A DNA stretch of 61,029 nt from Campylobacteraceae bacterium (GTDB taxonomy: Bacteria > Campylobacterota > Campylobacteria > Campylobacterales > Campylobacteraceae): positions 1-61,029 of the forward strand of contig JAISGD010000028.1 of assembly GCA_031263195.1 (NCBI GenBank), read 5' to 3'. Every line of letters starts with the position of its first letter. Position 1 is the first letter of the stretch. The position numbers were made by a program, and so were the translations under genes. Under the pieces are notes generated by a model that had not been told where the DNA came from, did no database searches, and worked only from the letters and a program-made list of their open reading frames with translations. Below are positions 42,988 through 49,222 of this stretch, one piece after another.

Positions 42988-42994
42988 ACTTCAC

Positions 42995-43022
42995 AAATAG
43001 CCTTGCAAAAGCAAGGTTATTT
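42995..43022 (+). terminator. hairpin after htpG
   Basis: A 12-bp stem (42995-43006 with 43011-43022, one G-U pair, loop AAAA) eight bases after the htpG stop. Confidence 0.7.
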
Positions 43023-43133
43023 CTCTATGCAGCGCGACTTTAATACTTAGTAGTCATCACGAGAACAATCGGAAGACGATTGCCATTTAGAGCAATATTC
43101 ATCTCTTTTTAAGAAAAATTGCAAACAAATACT

Positions 43134-43160
43134 ATAAAAAACGCCCCGCTAAAAAGCGGG
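43134..43160 (-). terminator. rho-independent terminator after the VWA/RCC1 gene
   Basis: On the minus strand CCCGCT-TTTT-AGCGGG followed by GCGTTTTTT. The stem is at plus 43145-43160 and the T-run at 43136-43141. It begins about 15 bases past the stop of the 1162-residue protein. Confidence 0.85.
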
Positions 43161-43174
43161 ACATTTCTGATTTG

Positions 43175-46100
43175 TTATTTATATTCTATCTTTACTCCTG
43201 GCCATTTAATAATACCGCCCAATTTGTCAAGATTTAATTTATACAAGTCGTTATACCCTACTCCATATAAATTTCCATCCGTCGTTTTATAGAATATATG
43301 CTCTTTTCCTCCGCCTATCTCTATAACCTCTTCATTAATTTCATGAGGCGATGCGTACTCTCCATAAATATGCTTAAACGCGCTTCCTGCCGTTTGCCCC
43401 CAAGTATAAATGACACCCTCATCGTTTAAAGCTATAGAACCTACATATCTCGCAAAAAGCTGCTTGACATTATGTAGGATAACAACAGGGTTAGGACTGC
43501 TCAAGCTTGTTTTTGTCGTTCCTTGGCCAAGAGCCGCCTCAAGTCCCCAGCCTATAACAGTACCATCATTCAACAACGCTTCGCCCCAACCGTTGCCTCC
43601 CGCTATATATACGATATCATTCGCGTATGTATCAAGATTTGTTACATGTGTTGGCGTTCTTACTATCTTTTGCACTCCATAATTAGTTCCCTTAAAGCCT
43701 AAACCGCTTGCTTCATTATCGCCCCAAGCGTAAACATGTCCTTCCTCAGTTACCGCAAATGCCCCTTCATATGCTGCGCCTATAAGTCTTGCTTTCTCTC
43801 CGTTTAAATTTACAAGCACGGGAGTTTGACTGTTTTTTGAGTTACCATTGCCAAGTTGTCCATACAAATTGTGTCCCCAAGTATAGACTTTGCCCTCATT
43901 ATCAAGAGCTATAGTAAAATATTCGCCTGCGGCTATTCCTGTTATATTGCCGATAACTTTGCAAAGCGTATCCACATATATGCCTATCGTATGTTCGCAA
44001 CCTGTTTCGCCGTATCCGCTTTGTCCCCATCCCCAAACATCTCCGTTAGCGTCAAGAGCTATCAAATGATATGCTCCGCCCGTAAGTTGCACTACATTGC
44101 TTAGACTCTCAACTTTGGCAGCAGGTTTATTGCTTGAAACTATCATTTTCCCGTTTCCTTGTTGAGCGGAACCTCTAAAGCCCCATACATAAACGTCGCC
44201 GTTTTCGTCAATTAATGTTCCGGTTGTGATAAGAGAGGATTTGGATATAGTACTTTTTGGTTTGGCTTTTGCGACTGTACTCTCAACAACAGCGTAATTT
44301 CCAACCTTTTTGTCATTGATTGGATACGCTAAAAAAGTTAATGTGCTTCTTGTACCCATCTCACTATTGCTACCAGGATTTAGCGTAACATTAATATCAA
44401 CGCTTTCATTGTTATCAATTGCAACAGTGTTTGGTTTTACACTAACAACAAATCCTTTGTCATCTACCGCCATAAAACCAAATAGCCCGTTTTCGGCATA
44501 ATTGACAACTTTAAAAGTGTAAGTTGTATTTGTATCCAACGGTAACTCTTTGCCAAACGGAGCAATCACGCGGATCGTTTGAGGAGCAACCTTTTGGGGC
44601 AGTACTCTTTGAAACTCTACGCCGTTTTTATCTTTACCAAAAGCGTAAACTATGAAATCCTCATTCGGTACAACAAAATCCTCTTTGAGAAAAACTGTTT
44701 TTACTCCCGGATATTCGTCAACCGTTGCAAGATTTAAAGTATCCAGCAACTCGCCGTTTTTTGCTCTAAGCTCAAAATAGACATCTGAAGTTACATCTGA
44801 TAATGTAGCTTCTATAGCAGAAACGGTTCCTGCTACAGGAAATCCGCTTATCTCAAAAAATCCTTCATGAGCCAAACGTCCGCCGTATTCTACAAATTTG
44901 AAACTGTCAAAAGAGAGCGGACTGTTTCCCGCTATGTTGATACTGAATTCGCCGTTACCCTCTAAAACTGTTTTCCATTCTCCGGCTTGAGGATTTGATA
45001 TGTCGTAAACAACGGCAGACGATAAAACTATGCGTTTCACATCAGCGTCATTAATATCAACTATTGTACCGTCCGGACGCACTATGGATGCTGTGGCGCT
45101 ACCGCTGACAATACTTATGGAGATAGATACTCTGTCTATCTTTGAATCAACCTTAAAACCGTATGACTTTTCATCGCTTGCTGTCAGCGTGCCACTGATA
45201 CTCATAATGCCGGTATAGTATCCGCTCATCATAATATCTGCAAGCGACGCCAACTCTCCGGCTTCCGCTCTGTTGATGATAAAGACCTGACCTCCCGTCA
45301 TATCGGATATTTCAAAATAATACGGATCATAGGGCGAGCAGCTTCCGCTCAAACTATTGTTTATTTTTATATTTTTAGATATAGCCATAACCGACGCCAG
45401 ATTAGCGTTGCTCGGGTCTTTAACGGAAGCGTCTGTGTAAACAAATAAGTTGCTTCCCGTTCCAAGAACTGCGACAGCTTTGTAAGTGCCAAGTCCGGAT
45501 AATTCCGGACAATCTCCGCCGTTCCCTCCGTATCCGGCGCGTAAACTTGAAAGTTTGTTAAGAAAAGTTTCTGATTCTGTTGTTACTAAAGGCTCCGGCA
45601 CATTAGGGTCATTGATGATAGAAAGTACATAGTGCGAAGGCTCATCGCCGCTGTCTATACGATTATTGACGATAGCGCTTACAGCCGCTTTTACTCCTCC
45701 TATCTCTTCGCTCATACTGCCTGTAGTATCTATGGCAAATCCAAGCGCAGGACCAAATCCGAGAAACTTTTTAAATGCCTTGTCGCCCTCAGTCACACCT
45801 TTTTTGGCTATCAGCGTATCTCTTATACTTTTGAAATACTTAACGGTAGCGGCGTTGGCGGCATTGGCTGCCGGTTTATGAAAATCATTATGAGGAGACA
45901 CGACGATACCGGCTCCCAAGACGCTTGTCACCAAACTGCAAGCAGACGAATCTTTGTTTATACCTTCGCTCCCAAGTCCGTCAAATGAACCGCCGTGAAA
46001 GCATTTTTTAACGCCTGCAAGCGGCGCGCCCGATGTCCCTTCAAAGTAACCGCTCGTGAGCTTACTTGTAACGATGTTGTTATCATTCATAAGCAAACAA

Positions 46101-46663
46101 GCGAGTGCCGGAGGAGTAAACGGAGGGATATTTGCATATTCGCAAGTATTCTCATTCGGTTCTGCTACATTGCTTATAGTGCCATATCCCATCTCGTTAT
46201 TTATGACAGAGCCGTGCATCTCTACCCAGTTGGAGTGGGCGTAAAAATCTTGCAAAGGATGCGTGACCGCGCCTATCGCTTTGCGGGCATCATCCATTTG
46301 TTCAGATAAGATATGACCAATCCCTTCCTCAGTACTGCTCTTGACCAGATTGCTGCACTGACTCAACTGCTCGCCGTCGCAATGCCAAATAGGATCTTTT
46401 TTCTTATCATCGTTATGGTCGGCGTTAGCGTTTGACTGTGATATAGTCTCTCTCACAGCTTTCATAACGTTCGTATAAGCTATACCTTCAGGTCCATAAC
46501 CGTACCCTGCATAAATCACATCCAATGCTTCAAGCGTTATCCTCTTATGATGCTCACCCGGAGCTACCGCCCTTGGATAGTCGGGGATGAAAGCCTCTGC
46601 ATTTGTTCCAAAAATCAGCGATATCAGCGCTATCGCGCTAAAAACTCTACTTTTTAAGTTCAT
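43175..46663 (-). CDS. large exported protein: VWA7-like head, VWA domain and RCC1-type repeats
   Basis: 1162 residues. Signal peptide ends at about 24 (A-E-A). Residues 30-300 have spaced histidines (H38-H39, H94, T-H135-P-L-Q-D-F-Y-A-H142-S-N-W-V-E), like the zinc-phospholipase-type / VWA7 N-terminal domain. A von Willebrand A domain follows with a MIDAS motif D312-T-T-G-S316. The middle (about 460-800) is beta-sandwich-like. From about 810 to the end are roughly seven RCC1-type repeats with V-Y-x-W-G-x-x-x-x-G-x-L-G spacing, enough for a seven-bladed propeller. AAGGAG precedes the ATG. It is the last gene of a cluster with three membrane-anchored paralogues. Surface binding or adhesion is a guess; no function is assigned. 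Confidence 0.85.
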   Translation of the reverse strand: MNLKSRVFSAIALISLIFGTNAEAFIPDYPRAVAPGEHHKRITLEALDVIYAGYGYGPEGIAYTNVMKAVRETISQSNANADHNDDKKKDPIWHCDGEQLSQCSNLVKSSTEEGIGHILSEQMDDARKAIGAVTHPLQDFYAHSNWVEMHGSVINNEMGYGTISNVAEPNENTCEYANIPPFTPPALACLLMNDNNIVTSKLTSGYFEGTSGAPLAGVKKCFHGGSFDGLGSEGINKDSSACSLVTSVLGAGIVVSPHNDFHKPAANAANAATVKYFKSIRDTLIAKKGVTEGDKAFKKFLGFGPALGFAIDTTGSMSEEIGGVKAAVSAIVNNRIDSGDEPSHYVLSIINDPNVPEPLVTTESETFLNKLSSLRAGYGGNGGDCPELSGLGTYKAVAVLGTGSNLFVYTDASVKDPSNANLASVMAISKNIKINNSLSGSCSPYDPYYFEISDMTGGQVFIINRAEAGELASLADIMMSGYYTGIMSISGTLTASDEKSYGFKVDSKIDRVSISISIVSGSATASIVRPDGTIVDINDADVKRIVLSSAVVYDISNPQAGEWKTVLEGNGEFSINIAGNSPLSFDSFKFVEYGGRLAHEGFFEISGFPVAGTVSAIEATLSDVTSDVYFELRAKNGELLDTLNLATVDEYPGVKTVFLKEDFVVPNEDFIVYAFGKDKNGVEFQRVLPQKVAPQTIRVIAPFGKELPLDTNTTYTFKVVNYAENGLFGFMAVDDKGFVVSVKPNTVAIDNNESVDINVTLNPGSNSEMGTRSTLTFLAYPINDKKVGNYAVVESTVAKAKPKSTISKSSLITTGTLIDENGDVYVWGFRGSAQQGNGKMIVSSNKPAAKVESLSNVVQLTGGAYHLIALDANGDVWGWGQSGYGETGCEHTIGIYVDTLCKVIGNITGIAAGEYFTIALDNEGKVYTWGHNLYGQLGNGNSKNSQTPVLVNLNGEKARLIGAAYEGAFAVTEEGHVYAWGDNEASGLGFKGTNYGVQKIVRTPTHVTNLDTYANDIVYIAGGNGWGEALLNDGTVIGWGLEAALGQGTTKTSLSSPNPVVILHNVKQLFARYVGSIALNDEGVIYTWGQTAGSAFKHIYGEYASPHEINEEVIEIGGGKEHIFYKTTDGNLYGVGYNDLYKLNLDKLGGIIKWPGVKIEYK

Positions 46664-46733
46664 AAAATCTCCTTCAAAACTTAATATGTAAGCTCTATTT
46701 TATAAAGCGCCTTTGCTTCAAATACCGGCAATT

Positions 46734-47306
46734 TTACTTCTCCTCTTTATATTTGTTTTTTATCTCTATAATATAATTTAACCCTGATATATGTTCTATC
46801 TCTGATACTCTATTTTTAAAAAACATTTCGTCAATAGGGAGTGAAAAATCTGTATTATCGATTCTGCACTCAAGGATAGCGATAGCCTCTTTGCCTCCTG
46901 CGGCAAAAATCACCCTTATCGCTTCTGCCATATCATCACTATTCAACCACCACTTTCTATAATCTTTCATAAATACTTCGGATAAAATATCCCAATCCTC
47001 AATGGATAATTTAGCCTGCATTTCGTAAACTCTTTTAATCTTGGGACCTATGCCCGGCAATTCTATACCATGTCCTTCCATTCTGATACCTATAGTGTTT
47101 GACAAAGCTTTTCTAAGTTCTGTCTCTCTTTGTTCTCTTTGTTCTTTCTCTTGAACTGTGAATGTTTTTGTCTCGTTAGAACATATAAATCCTTCTAATG
47201 ATGTATTTGAGGCGGATTTCAGCGGAGGATTTGCCAGAAAATCATATGCGAAAAATATCGCCAACGCTAATATTAATGCAATAAATATTTTGTATCTTAA
47301 CTTCAT
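46734..47306 (-). CDS. membrane-anchored protein of unknown family, paralogue 1
   Basis: A 190-residue protein with one N-terminal membrane helix (about 6-25), then S-A-S-N-T-S-L-E-G-F and a helical charged domain with G-I-R-M-E-G-H-G-I and L-S-I-E-D-W-D-I-L. Close relative of the protein at 48158-48727 and more distant relative of that at 47433-48077. Not recognised as a known family; the C-terminal half looks helical-repeat-like. AAGGAGAT lies six bases before the ATG in a leader duplicated upstream of paralogue 2. Confidence 0.75.
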   Translation of the reverse strand: MKLRYKIFIALILALAIFFAYDFLANPPLKSASNTSLEGFICSNETKTFTVQEKEQREQRETELRKALSNTIGIRMEGHGIELPGIGPKIKRVYEMQAKLSIEDWDILSEVFMKDYRKWWLNSDDMAEAIRVIFAAGGKEAIAILECRIDNTDFSLPIDEMFFKNRVSEIEHISGLNYIIEIKNKYKEEK

Positions 47307-47358
47307 ACTGATCTCCTTATAAAGATTTTATATAACTGTTAGTTTCAAAAGAAACGCC
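47307..47358 (-). repeat. duplicated 5' leader of paralogue 1
   Basis: On the minus strand this segment reads GGCGTTTCTTTTGAAACTAA… and ends at the ribosome-binding site. It is about 85 percent identical to 48078-48130 before paralogue 2. It shows the leader was duplicated with the gene. Confidence 0.75.
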
Positions 47359-47432
47359 TTAAAAATTAAAATTACGCTATAGGCTAAAATGCCAACAAGC
47401 AATTTAACAGCCTCTTACTCAAATATCTGCCG

Positions 47433-48077
47433 TTATCTTTTTGCCTCCTTTGCTCGTATCTCTCTTATGCGTTGTTGTATACCATAAGAATTAAGTGCAC
47501 CTCTCAAGTCATCTATCATATATTGAACATGTTTTTTTGTCTCAGATGATAAATTTTTAGCATTGGCTTTGCATTCAAAGATAGCTATAGCTCTATCTCC
47601 TCCTATAACAAACAAAGCATATATTGCACTTTTCTTATGACTATATCTTTCACCACTGTTATACATATCCGCCAACAGTCCCCAATCCTCCAATGAAAAC
47701 TTCTTTTGCAGTCTGTAGAGATTTTTCCATCTTGGTTGTATGCTGAACCATGGTATGTCATGTCCTCCGAAAGTAAGTCCAACACTGCTATCGATAGCTT
47801 TTTCTATCTCTTTGATTCTCTCTTGTTTTTGCTCTGTGTTTAAAATCTCGTTCTTGTCTTCACATACAAATCCTTCCAAAGATGTATTTGAAGCAGCTTT
47901 AAATGTGCTTCCGTCATATTTCATGGCAATTTGTAAAAGAGCATATATCAAAAATATCACTGAATATATGAATGTCATAGTCCTGATGCCCTTATCTGCG
48001 GTTTTTACCTTTACGGAAAGAACTAAAAGTATTATCGTTGCTATGGCAATAGAAAGTTCAACGCCTAAACCGGTCAT
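47433..48077 (-). CDS. membrane protein of unknown family, paralogue 2 (extended N-terminus)
   Basis: A 214-residue protein. The N-terminus has two hydrophobic segments (about 5-23 and 31-50) instead of one, then A-A-S-N-T-S-L-E-G-F and the same domain as paralogues 1 and 3 (G-L-T-F-G-G-H-D-I, F-S-L-E-D-W-G-L-L). Diverged from the other two in the membrane part. AAGGAGG before the ATG. Confidence 0.72.
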   Translation of the reverse strand: MTGLGVELSIAIATIILLVLSVKVKTADKGIRTMTFIYSVIFLIYALLQIAMKYDGSTFKAASNTSLEGFVCEDKNEILNTEQKQERIKEIEKAIDSSVGLTFGGHDIPWFSIQPRWKNLYRLQKKFSLEDWGLLADMYNSGERYSHKKSAIYALFVIGGDRAIAIFECKANAKNLSSETKKHVQYMIDDLRGALNSYGIQQRIREIRAKEAKR

Positions 48078-48130
48078 GATTTTCCTCCTTATGAAGATTT
48101 CATATAATTGTTAGTTTCAAAAGAAACGCC
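48078..48130 (-). repeat. duplicated 5' leader of paralogue 2
   Basis: Partner of 47307-47358. The core of CTTTTGAAACTAACA followed by an A/T stretch and the ribosome-binding site is shared. Confidence 0.75.
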
Positions 48131-48157
48131 CTGTTTATCAACCCTTCCTCAACTTTA

Positions 48158-48727
48158 CTAATCCTTTTTATATTTTTCATAAGATAGAATAAATCCTGGG
48201 GATCCAGTTAAGCCTAAAATATAAAGTTCAACTGCATGCTCAAGGTCTGATTTTTCCGATTGAGCAATGTTCATATTGTTGATTTTACATTTAAGAATAC
48301 TTATAGCCTCTTTATTTTGTATGGCGAACAATTTAATTATGGCTTCCCTTCTATCATTATGTTCCAACCACCACCTTTCATAATCTTTCACAAATACTTC
48401 AGATAAAATATCCCAATCCTCAATAGACAGTTTGGTCTGCATCTCATAAACTCTCTTGATCTTAGGACCTATGCCATGCAATTTTATACCGTGTCCTTCC
48501 ATTCTGATACCTATGGTGTCCGACAAAGCTTTTCTAAGTTCTGTCTCTCTTTGCTCTCTTTGTTCTTTTTCTTGAATTGTCAAAGTTTTTGTCTCATTAG
48601 AACATATAAACCCTTCAAGAGATGTGTTTGAGGCGGATTTCAGCGGAGGATTTACCAAAAAATCATATGCGAAAAATATTGCCGATATTAAAGCTATCGC
48701 GATTAATATTTTATATCTTAATTTCAT
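48158..48727 (-). CDS. membrane-anchored protein of unknown family, paralogue 3
   Basis: A 189-residue protein. The frame runs up to 48754, but those codons read through the leader (ATAAGGAGATTGAT); the ATG at 48727 follows AAGGAGAT and gives M-K-L-R-Y-K-I, matching paralogue 1. One membrane helix, then S-A-S-N-T-S-L-E-G-F and the shared domain. The region from residue 25 to 110 is almost the same as in paralogue 1. Confidence 0.75.
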   Translation of the reverse strand: MKLRYKILIAIALISAIFFAYDFLVNPPLKSASNTSLEGFICSNETKTLTIQEKEQREQRETELRKALSDTIGIRMEGHGIKLHGIGPKIKRVYEMQTKLSIEDWDILSEVFVKDYERWWLEHNDRREAIIKLFAIQNKEAISILKCKINNMNIAQSEKSDLEHAVELYILGLTGSPGFILSYEKYKKD

Positions 48728-48763
48728 ATCAATCTCCTTATAAAGATTTTTCAATTATGATTT

Positions 48764-48964
48764 TTATTGCTCACAATCAGAGCAAGACGTATCAAAACCC
48801 GACTGAGTCTCTTGAGTATGCGCGGTTCCGTCATTTGGAAGCGGCGCTTTGAGCGATACAGTTGTATTGGCATTTATTGTCTCGTTTGAAGCAACTTCTA
48901 CATTTGCACTTAAGGCAAATGATATTAGGCATATTATGCTAAAAATTATACTTTGAACTTTCAT
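48764..48964 (-). CDS. small exported peptide (66 residues)
   Basis: A clear signal peptide (about 1-19, ending F-A-L-S-A) leaves a mature peptide of about 47 residues, rich in Asn, Thr and Ser and ending S-C-S-D-C-E-Q. The C-x-x-C near the C-terminus could form a disulphide or bind metal. AGGAG precedes the ATG. First gene of the minus-strand cluster that ends with the VWA/RCC1 protein. No known family. Confidence 0.6.
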   Translation of the reverse strand: MKVQSIIFSIICLISFALSANVEVASNETINANTTVSLKAPLPNDGTAHTQETQSGFDTSCSDCEQ

Positions 48965-49222
48965 AAAAATCTCCTAAAAATCAATTAATAGATTAAATCA
49001 TATCTAAACTATAAAATAAATACAATAAATATACATTTTTATATCTCAATTTACTTCGACACGTTACATTTTGTTATATATTCTGACTAATAAAATATAT
49101 ATTAAATATAATTGCTATGCTGATTATTAATATCATATTATGAAAATAAATAGGAACGTCTTTTAAGCAAAAGTTTCGCCACGGTAGATTATCATATCCG
49201 GAAAACATCCAAAGGAGAATTT

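What the first reader, a model, noticed from the sequence alone, without database searches (positions are those of the whole stretch)
43175..48964. Candidate undescribed system: exported peptide + three anchored paralogues + VWA/RCC1 protein
All five genes are on one strand and end at a strong terminator. The three paralogues share a membrane anchor, the S-A-S-N-T-S-L-E-G-F motif and a helical domain that I cannot match. A large exported effector preceded by several divergent anchored paralogues resembles a protein with self-protection or processing partners. The 66-residue peptide with C-terminal C-x-x-C could be a signal or substrate.
Basis: inference. Interest (0 to 1): 0.75.

Follow-up and report, generated by a model that had tools for sequence, protein, structure and literature searches.

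The report
HET-C enzyme cassette with periplasmic partners
A bacterium whose relatives live in termite guts carries a rare gene cassette for a large exported protein whose front end looks like a zinc phospholipase/nuclease of the HET-C toxin type, together with small periplasm-facing proteins that accompany it even in distantly related bacteria and may protect the cell from it.

Summary
Five minus-strand ORFs end at a strong terminator. Its predicted structure matches only zinc phospholipase C and S1/P1 nucleases above the noise (Z 6.8-10.9; next 4.8). The architecture is HET-C/VWA7_N + VWA + galactose-binding-like + Ig + RCC1. The paralogue domain, unknown to Pfam, NCBIfam, PADLOC and PDB, lies directly upstream of this gene in all five informative full-architecture loci: Campylobacteraceae, a second Campylobacterales family, and two Burkholderiales MAGs with two tandem copies each (hhalign E 4.6e-16). 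It is rare (0 of 368 other genomes in a class sample). Anchoring changes (TM helix, probable lipoprotein, Sec signal with Sel1 repeats) but export does not. Best reading: an exported HET-C-type hydrolase with periplasmic immunity-like partners; a steric chaperone is the main rival. The 66-aa peptide is not conserved. Against: some large genes, mostly degraded, lack paralogues, and orphan paralogues exist. All function is inferred. New variant of a known kind.

The parts
48764..48964 (-). 66-aa Sec-exported peptide (MKVQ...CSDCEQ); no homologue in other loci examined
   Evidence: ORF; no match in fetched loci except the window itself; no such ORF upstream of the Burkholderiales cassettes
48158..48727 (-). 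Paralogue 1, 189 aa, N-terminal TM anchor + periplasm-facing helical domain
   Evidence: same family as L090/L091 proteins
47433..48077 (-). Paralogue 2, 214 aa, two N-terminal TM helices + same domain
   Evidence: same two-TM type in G003, G006, G008
46734..47306 (-). Paralogue 3, 190 aa, TM anchor + same domain; 71% identical to paralogue 1
   Evidence: AF2 core residues 51-157 mostly at pLDDT 70-95
43175..46663 (-). 1162-aa exported protein: Sec signal, HET-C/VWA7_N (zinc PLC/S1-P1-like), VWA, GBD_Hemicentin, Ig_VWA7, RCC1 tail
   Evidence: Pfam; fold match; full-length orthologues of 1190 and 1186 aa in Burkholderiales
45812..46591 (-). HET-C/VWA7_N domain, residues about 25-284; H39, D82, H94xD96, H135xxxD139xxxH143, N145xxE148
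   Evidence: invariant in relatives; PLC/S1-P1 fold Z 6.8-10.9
45275..45748 (-). VWA domain, residues about 306-463, MIDAS DTTGS at 312
   Evidence: Pfam VWA_4 1.6e-29; motif kept in G102, L090, L091, lost in G002 and G010
43178..44263 (-). RCC1 tail, residues about 801-1162, the most conserved part (70-74% identical across lineages)
43137..43168 (-). Intrinsic terminator after the large gene
47313..47358 (-). 46-nt direct repeat upstream of paralogue 3 (other copy 48085-48130 upstream of paralogue 2, 93% identical)

Best explanation
The locus is a mobile two-component cassette. Component one is a Sec-exported, possibly type-II-secreted effector with an N-terminal metal-dependent hydrolase of the HET-C/VWA7_N type (zinc phospholipase C/S1-P1 nuclease fold), followed by a VWA domain, a galactose-binding-like domain, an Ig domain and an RCC1 propeller that probably serve binding or delivery. 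Component two is one to three small proteins that keep the same helical domain outside the cytoplasm, facing the periplasm; they most likely bind the effector and block its attack on the producer's own membranes or nucleic acids (immunity). Shown: domain content, conserved motif residues, fold resemblance, conserved linkage and rarity of both parts. Inferred: enzymatic activity, secretion route, target, partner binding and immunity.
For: VWA7_N 9.9e-34. HET-C motif invariant, matching the published Tox-HET-C motif 'H, [DE], HxD, HxxxDxxxH, Nxx[DE]', for which no immunity partner is listed (PMC3482391). The best 17 structural matches are all zinc PLC or S1/P1-type nucleases, Z 10.9-6.8, next 4.8. 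The paralogue domain lies directly upstream, same strand, in G000, G102, G153, L090 and L091. Homology across lineages: hhalign 98.7%, E 4.6e-16; hmmsearch 1.4e-14 to 1.7e-9 at Z=1e6, best shuffle 7.8 bits. Co-occurrence in 463 genomes, Fisher p 1.9e-9 uncorrected for kinship, 4.9e-5 collapsed to lineages on approximate genus counts. The partner is exported in three different ways (TM, probable lipoprotein, Sec signal + Sel1), as expected if periplasmic exposure is selected. Partners diverge faster (23-41% between lineages) than the HET-C domain (53-57%). Multiple tandem copies and orphans are usual for immunity genes; known phospholipase immunity (Tli) proteins are exported, can be several per effector, and the three Tli5b proteins carry Sel1-like repeats (PMC13133936). 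A gspD-gspE-like pair exists in this genome.
Against: G002 and G010 keep the HET-C motif but have no paralogue. G002 has lost the RCC1 tail and both have lost the MIDAS, so they may be inactive. G176 has three paralogues and no HET-C gene. No binding, toxicity or protection has been measured. The HET-C model is modest overall (mean pLDDT 62.7; residues 223-258 low). The Foldseek E-values alone are not significant.
Confidence: 0.5

Rival explanations
1. The paralogues are dedicated folding or export partners (steric chaperones, in the manner of lipase-specific foldases) that hold the large exported hydrolase at the inner membrane until it is released through the secretion machinery.
For: Membrane-anchored periplasm-facing helical proteins encoded next to a secreted lipase-like enzyme fit the foldase plan (general knowledge of Lif). 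Conserved linkage and export fit equally well. Full-architecture genes always have a partner while degraded ones do not.
Against: Two or three divergent copies per locus and orphan copies are not expected of a chaperone. The anchor is replaced by a freely exported form in Burkholderiales. No Pfam match to a chaperone family.
Confidence: 0.25
2. The large protein is a surface or secreted adhesin or binding protein in which the HET-C domain is no longer catalytic; the paralogues are accessory surface proteins of an adhesion cassette in gut bacteria.
For: VWA, galactose-binding-like, Ig and RCC1 modules are binding modules. The RCC1 tail is the most conserved part (70-74%), and its start is shared by other exported proteins with different heads. 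Human VWA7 has the same core and no known enzymatic role (own knowledge).
Against: All HET-C motif residues are invariant across lineages, which argues for retained catalysis.
Confidence: 0.17
3. Variant of the best explanation on the target: the cassette acts on eukaryotes (gut protists, fungi or the insect), and the paralogues only protect the bacterium from its own enzyme during export.
For: HET-C proteins act in fungal incompatibility and one bacterial HET-C is reported as needed to attack fungi (PMC3482391). RCC1-repeat effectors of Legionella act on the eukaryotic Ran GTPase cycle (PMC7157520). The close named carriers bear sample codes of insect-gut MAG projects, one confirmed as Cubitermes ugandensis.
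Against: No eukaryote-specific feature tested; Sec-type export does not reach a host cytosol by itself.
Confidence: 0.3
4. Chance neighbours: unrelated genes that happen to lie together in this genome.
For: In other congeners the htpG-copZ interval holds different genes or none.
Against: Same two components linked in three lineages and in different genomic surroundings.
Confidence: 0.03

Closest known systems
Tox-HET-C domain of polymorphic toxin systems (Zhang et al. 2012, PMC3482391)
   Same: Same motif set (H, D/E, HxD, HxxxDxxxH, NxxE), predicted PLC/S1-P1 relation, occurrence in exported conflict proteins
   Different: Here the hydrolase is N-terminal on a VWA/Ig/RCC1 scaffold with a Sec signal, not a toxin carried by T6SS or PVC proteins; that table lists no immunity partner, whereas here a linked partner family is found
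VWA7 (Pfam VWA7_N, VWA_4, GBD_Hemicentin, Ig_VWA7)
   Same: Same four consecutive domains over about 780 residues
   Different: RCC1 tail added; bacterial; linked periplasm-facing partners
T6SS lipase effector/immunity pairs (Tle/Tli; Tle5b with three Sel1-repeat Tli5b)
   Same: Lipase-type effector with several tandem exported partners, Sel1 repeats in some (PMC13133936)
   Different: Effector fold of the zinc PLC/S1-P1 type, Sec signal rather than VgrG/PAAR delivery; partner domain matches no Pfam family above cut-off. Analogy, not membership
[quoted passage not shown]
   Same: Only structural matches above background (Z 6.8-10.9)
   Different: About 10% identity; no sequence-level match in the PDB; substrate unknown
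Lipase-specific foldase (Lif)
   Same: Anchored periplasmic helical partner encoded beside a secreted lipase (own knowledge)
   Different: Several copies here, no Pfam match; resemblance recalled, not tested by structure

Membership tests
HET-C / VWA7_N domain family | Profile match above the curated cut-off | tested here: met
   PF25107 117.1 bits against 27.5; PF07217 Het-C itself is below its cut-off (15.1 against 21)
HET-C / VWA7_N domain family | Conserved H, D/E, HxD, HxxxDxxxH, NxxE residues | tested here: met
   invariant across relatives
HET-C / VWA7_N domain family | PLC/S1-P1 all-alpha fold | tested here: met
   VIA Z 6.8-10.9 for the 17 best entries, all of this superfamily, gap to 4.8; model confidence moderate, Foldseek E not significant
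HET-C / VWA7_N domain family | Metal-dependent phospholipase or nuclease activity | not testable with these tools
   needs biochemistry
VWA7-like proteins | VWA7_N + VWA_4 + GBD_Hemicentin + Ig_VWA7 in that order | tested here: met
   all above cut-off; also in P0013 and P0014
Toxin-immunity pair | Effector and partner genes linked across genomes | tested here: met
   5 of 5 informative full-architecture loci, three lineages
Toxin-immunity pair | Toxin harms the cell and partner neutralises it | not testable with these tools
   needs expression assay
Toxin-immunity pair | Partner located where the toxin acts | tested here: inconclusive
   all partners carry an export signal or anchor by inspection; site of action of the effector unknown
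Classical polymorphic toxin (CDI/Rhs type) | Conserved N-terminal carrier with variable C-terminal toxin | tested here: not met
   here the hydrolase is N-terminal and the RCC1 tail is the most conserved part
T6SS Tle/Tli pair | Partner belongs to a known Tli family (DUF3304, DUF2931 and others) | tested here: inconclusive
   no Pfam family above cut-off in Campylobacterota partners; only Sel1 in Burkholderiales partners
Known anti-phage defence system | PADLOC model match | tested here: not met
   no match for the six proteins scanned

The most novel reading that the evidence does not exclude
A previously undescribed exported immunity family for HET-C/VWA7-type hydrolases, exchanged as a cassette between Campylobacterota and Burkholderiales of insect guts. 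The shared RCC1 tail would act as a common carrier onto which different enzymatic heads (HET-C, metallopeptidase-like) are swapped, the mirror image of classical polymorphic toxins.
Probability: 0.35. Interest if true: 0.8.

Novelty: new variant of a known kind. Interest (0 to 1): 0.62.

Why it matters
HET-C domains drive fungal self/non-self killing, sit in bacterial toxins and form the N-terminus of human VWA7 (MHC class III region), yet what they hydrolyse and how producers survive is open. The 2012 survey of polymorphic toxins lists no immunity partner for them (PMC3482391). A conserved, rare, periplasm-exposed partner family next to an intact HET-C protein gives a two-gene test of toxicity and neutralisation, and the model here gives structural support for the PLC/S1-P1 relation that was earlier of borderline significance.

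Tried and rejected
Single-sequence search of genome contigs with a paralogue found no relatives; the Burkholderiales copies are too divergent and came to light only through the large gene. Phage records and viral contigs gave no relatives; plasmid hits to a Burkholderiales partner carry TPR/Sel1-repeat annotations and their alignments lie mostly in the Sel1 half. PDB by sequence: nothing convincing for the paralogue profile (one chain at E 0.76) and nothing for the HET-C profile. Fold search of the paralogue gave no convincing match (best Z 6.8, mixed helical folds), so its fold is left open. Anti-phage defence was considered and dropped. Weak paralogue hits in G136, G154, G185 and G370 (E 9e-4 to 0.008) were treated as chance: G154's lies among virus-like genes, and G136 and G185 have several stops inside. 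The weak G129 fragment (6.9e-6) was not recovered with the larger profile and is not counted.

Full report
Observation. The five ORFs, their order, the shared motif, the anchors and the terminator are as described. Each start has a GGAG-type ribosome site; paralogue 1 starts at 48727. Paralogues 1 and 3 are a recent duplication (71% protein identity; 300 nt at 85%); paralogue 2 is more distant (32%) and has two TM helices. A 46-nt repeat precedes paralogues 2 and 3.

The large protein. Pfam shows VWA7_N (64-284), VWA_4 (306-463), GBD_Hemicentin (497-581), Ig_VWA7 (713-797) and RCC1 repeats from about 817 on. VWA7_N is the HET-C-type domain. The published Tox-HET-C motif, H, [DE], HxD, HxxxDxxxH, Nxx[DE] (PMC3482391), is present as H39, D82, H94-C-D96, H135-PLQ-D139-FYA-H143 and N145-WV-E148, and is invariant in relatives (H39 in the six rows that cover it). 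An AlphaFold2 model from six sequences (mean pLDDT 62.7, the main helices mostly 77-95) was compared with the PDB. The top 17 entries are all zinc PLC or S1/P1-type nucleases (Z 10.9-6.8), then a drop to 4.8. Foldseek E-values were not significant, so this is support rather than proof.

Relatives. A scan of 84,980 species genomes with the HET-C alignment found seven loci: six close and one distant. The close ones are MAGs labelled Campylobacteraceae (L087 = G002, L088 = G010), Helicobacteraceae (L089 = G102, L092 = G153), Burkholderiales (L091) and Proteobacteria (L090, in the same genome family as L091). L090 carries the sample code Cu122, Cubitermes ugandensis gut (PMC7024585); the other codes look like the same kind of termite-gut project but were not confirmed. 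The host of the window's own genome is not known.

Linkage. In L090 and L091 two tandem exported proteins lie directly upstream of a full-length 1190/1186-aa orthologue. Their N-terminal halves are the paralogue domain (hhalign 98.7%, E 4.6e-16; hmmsearch 1.4e-14 to 1.7e-9 at Z=1e6, 4000 shuffles at or below 7.8 bits). Both L090 proteins have C-terminal Sel1 repeats; the first L091 protein looks alike by eye. G102 and G153, in another Campylobacterales family, have one lipoprotein-like copy directly upstream. Every full-architecture gene whose upstream side is on the contig (window, G102, G153, L090, L091) has a partner there; the G102 and G153 large genes carry frame breaks, real or from assembly. 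The outer neighbours differ between L090 and L091 (hydrogenase genes; sugar- and LPS-type transferase genes), so the unit moves as a whole.

Rarity. In 399 genomes of the order, strong paralogue hits occur in four (G000, G102, G153, G176) plus a weak fragment in G129; VWA7_N occurs in five (G000, G102, G129, G153, G223). In the Burkholderiales family of 64 genomes the paralogue is in two and VWA7_N in three, including the same two. No other genome of 369 in the class sample has the paralogue. Fisher p over 463 genomes is 1.9e-9 uncorrected for kinship, 4.9e-5 when collapsed to lineages on approximate genus numbers.

Export. The partner keeps an export signal but changes its form: one or two TM helices in the window and congeners, a probable lipobox in G102/G153/G176, a plain Sec signal in Burkholderiales (read by eye). 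It diverges faster (23-41% between lineages) than the HET-C (53-57%) or RCC1 (70-74%) parts of its neighbour.

Exceptions. G002 (826 aa, no RCC1, no MIDAS), G010 (MIDAS lost, cut by the contig end) and G013 (broken by stops) have the large gene without a paralogue. G176 has three paralogues and no HET-C gene found; one lies next to a sigma-factor-like gene. In G003, G006 and G008 the paralogue runs into a contig end. G008 also has an RCC1 tail (86% identical) beginning another contig.

The 66-aa peptide has no counterpart in other fetched loci, and no comparable ORF precedes the Burkholderiales cassettes. In G102 a 63-codon stub of the large gene's start precedes the partner, and in G003 a 30-aa signal peptide does, so such stubs may be left-overs of earlier genes. 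This is a suggestion only.

Mechanism. Inferred: Sec export, then possibly T2SS (a gspD-gspE-like pair exists); a metal-dependent hydrolase acting on a membrane lipid or nucleic acid of a neighbour, protist or host; partners facing the producer's periplasm that bind and block it. Several tandem exported partners, some with Sel1 repeats, parallel Tle5b and its three Tli5b proteins (PMC13133936) in plan, not in sequence. A steric chaperone role is the main rival.

Status. The HET-C, VWA7 and RCC1 domains are known; the combination with this rare partner family is not in the databases searched.

Noticed in passing
L047:3-3389 (G007, P0005) and L048:565-3539 (G006): Two other exported proteins with metallopeptidase-like motifs (HEFGHAIAHE; HEKTH) run into the same RCC1 tail (56-72% over its first 46-55 residues) and end at contig breaks, suggesting a constant tail with several heads in this genus.
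   Followed up: partly
window 42988-49222 (htpG to copZ): This interval is variable in congeners: empty in G012, GLUG-repeat protein plus a VWA7 remnant in G011, a large autotransporter-like protein and a lipoprotein upstream of copZ in G004.
   Followed up: partly
L077:2507-3208 and L078:3839-4468 (G176): Orphan paralogue-domain proteins with an extra C-terminal hydrophobic segment.
   Followed up: no
L095:5953-6828 (G223) and L093:5881-6603: Short stand-alone HET-C-like proteins (291 and 240 aa) without VWA, RCC1 or an obvious partner.
   Followed up: no
L038:1-192 (G102): A 63-codon truncated copy of the large gene's start, with its upstream sequence, precedes the partner gene; the longer copy follows it.
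   Followed up: partly
window 47313-47358 and 48085-48130: 46-nt intergenic repeat containing a short hairpin (GTTTCTTTTGAAAC), upstream of paralogues 3 and 2.
   Followed up: no
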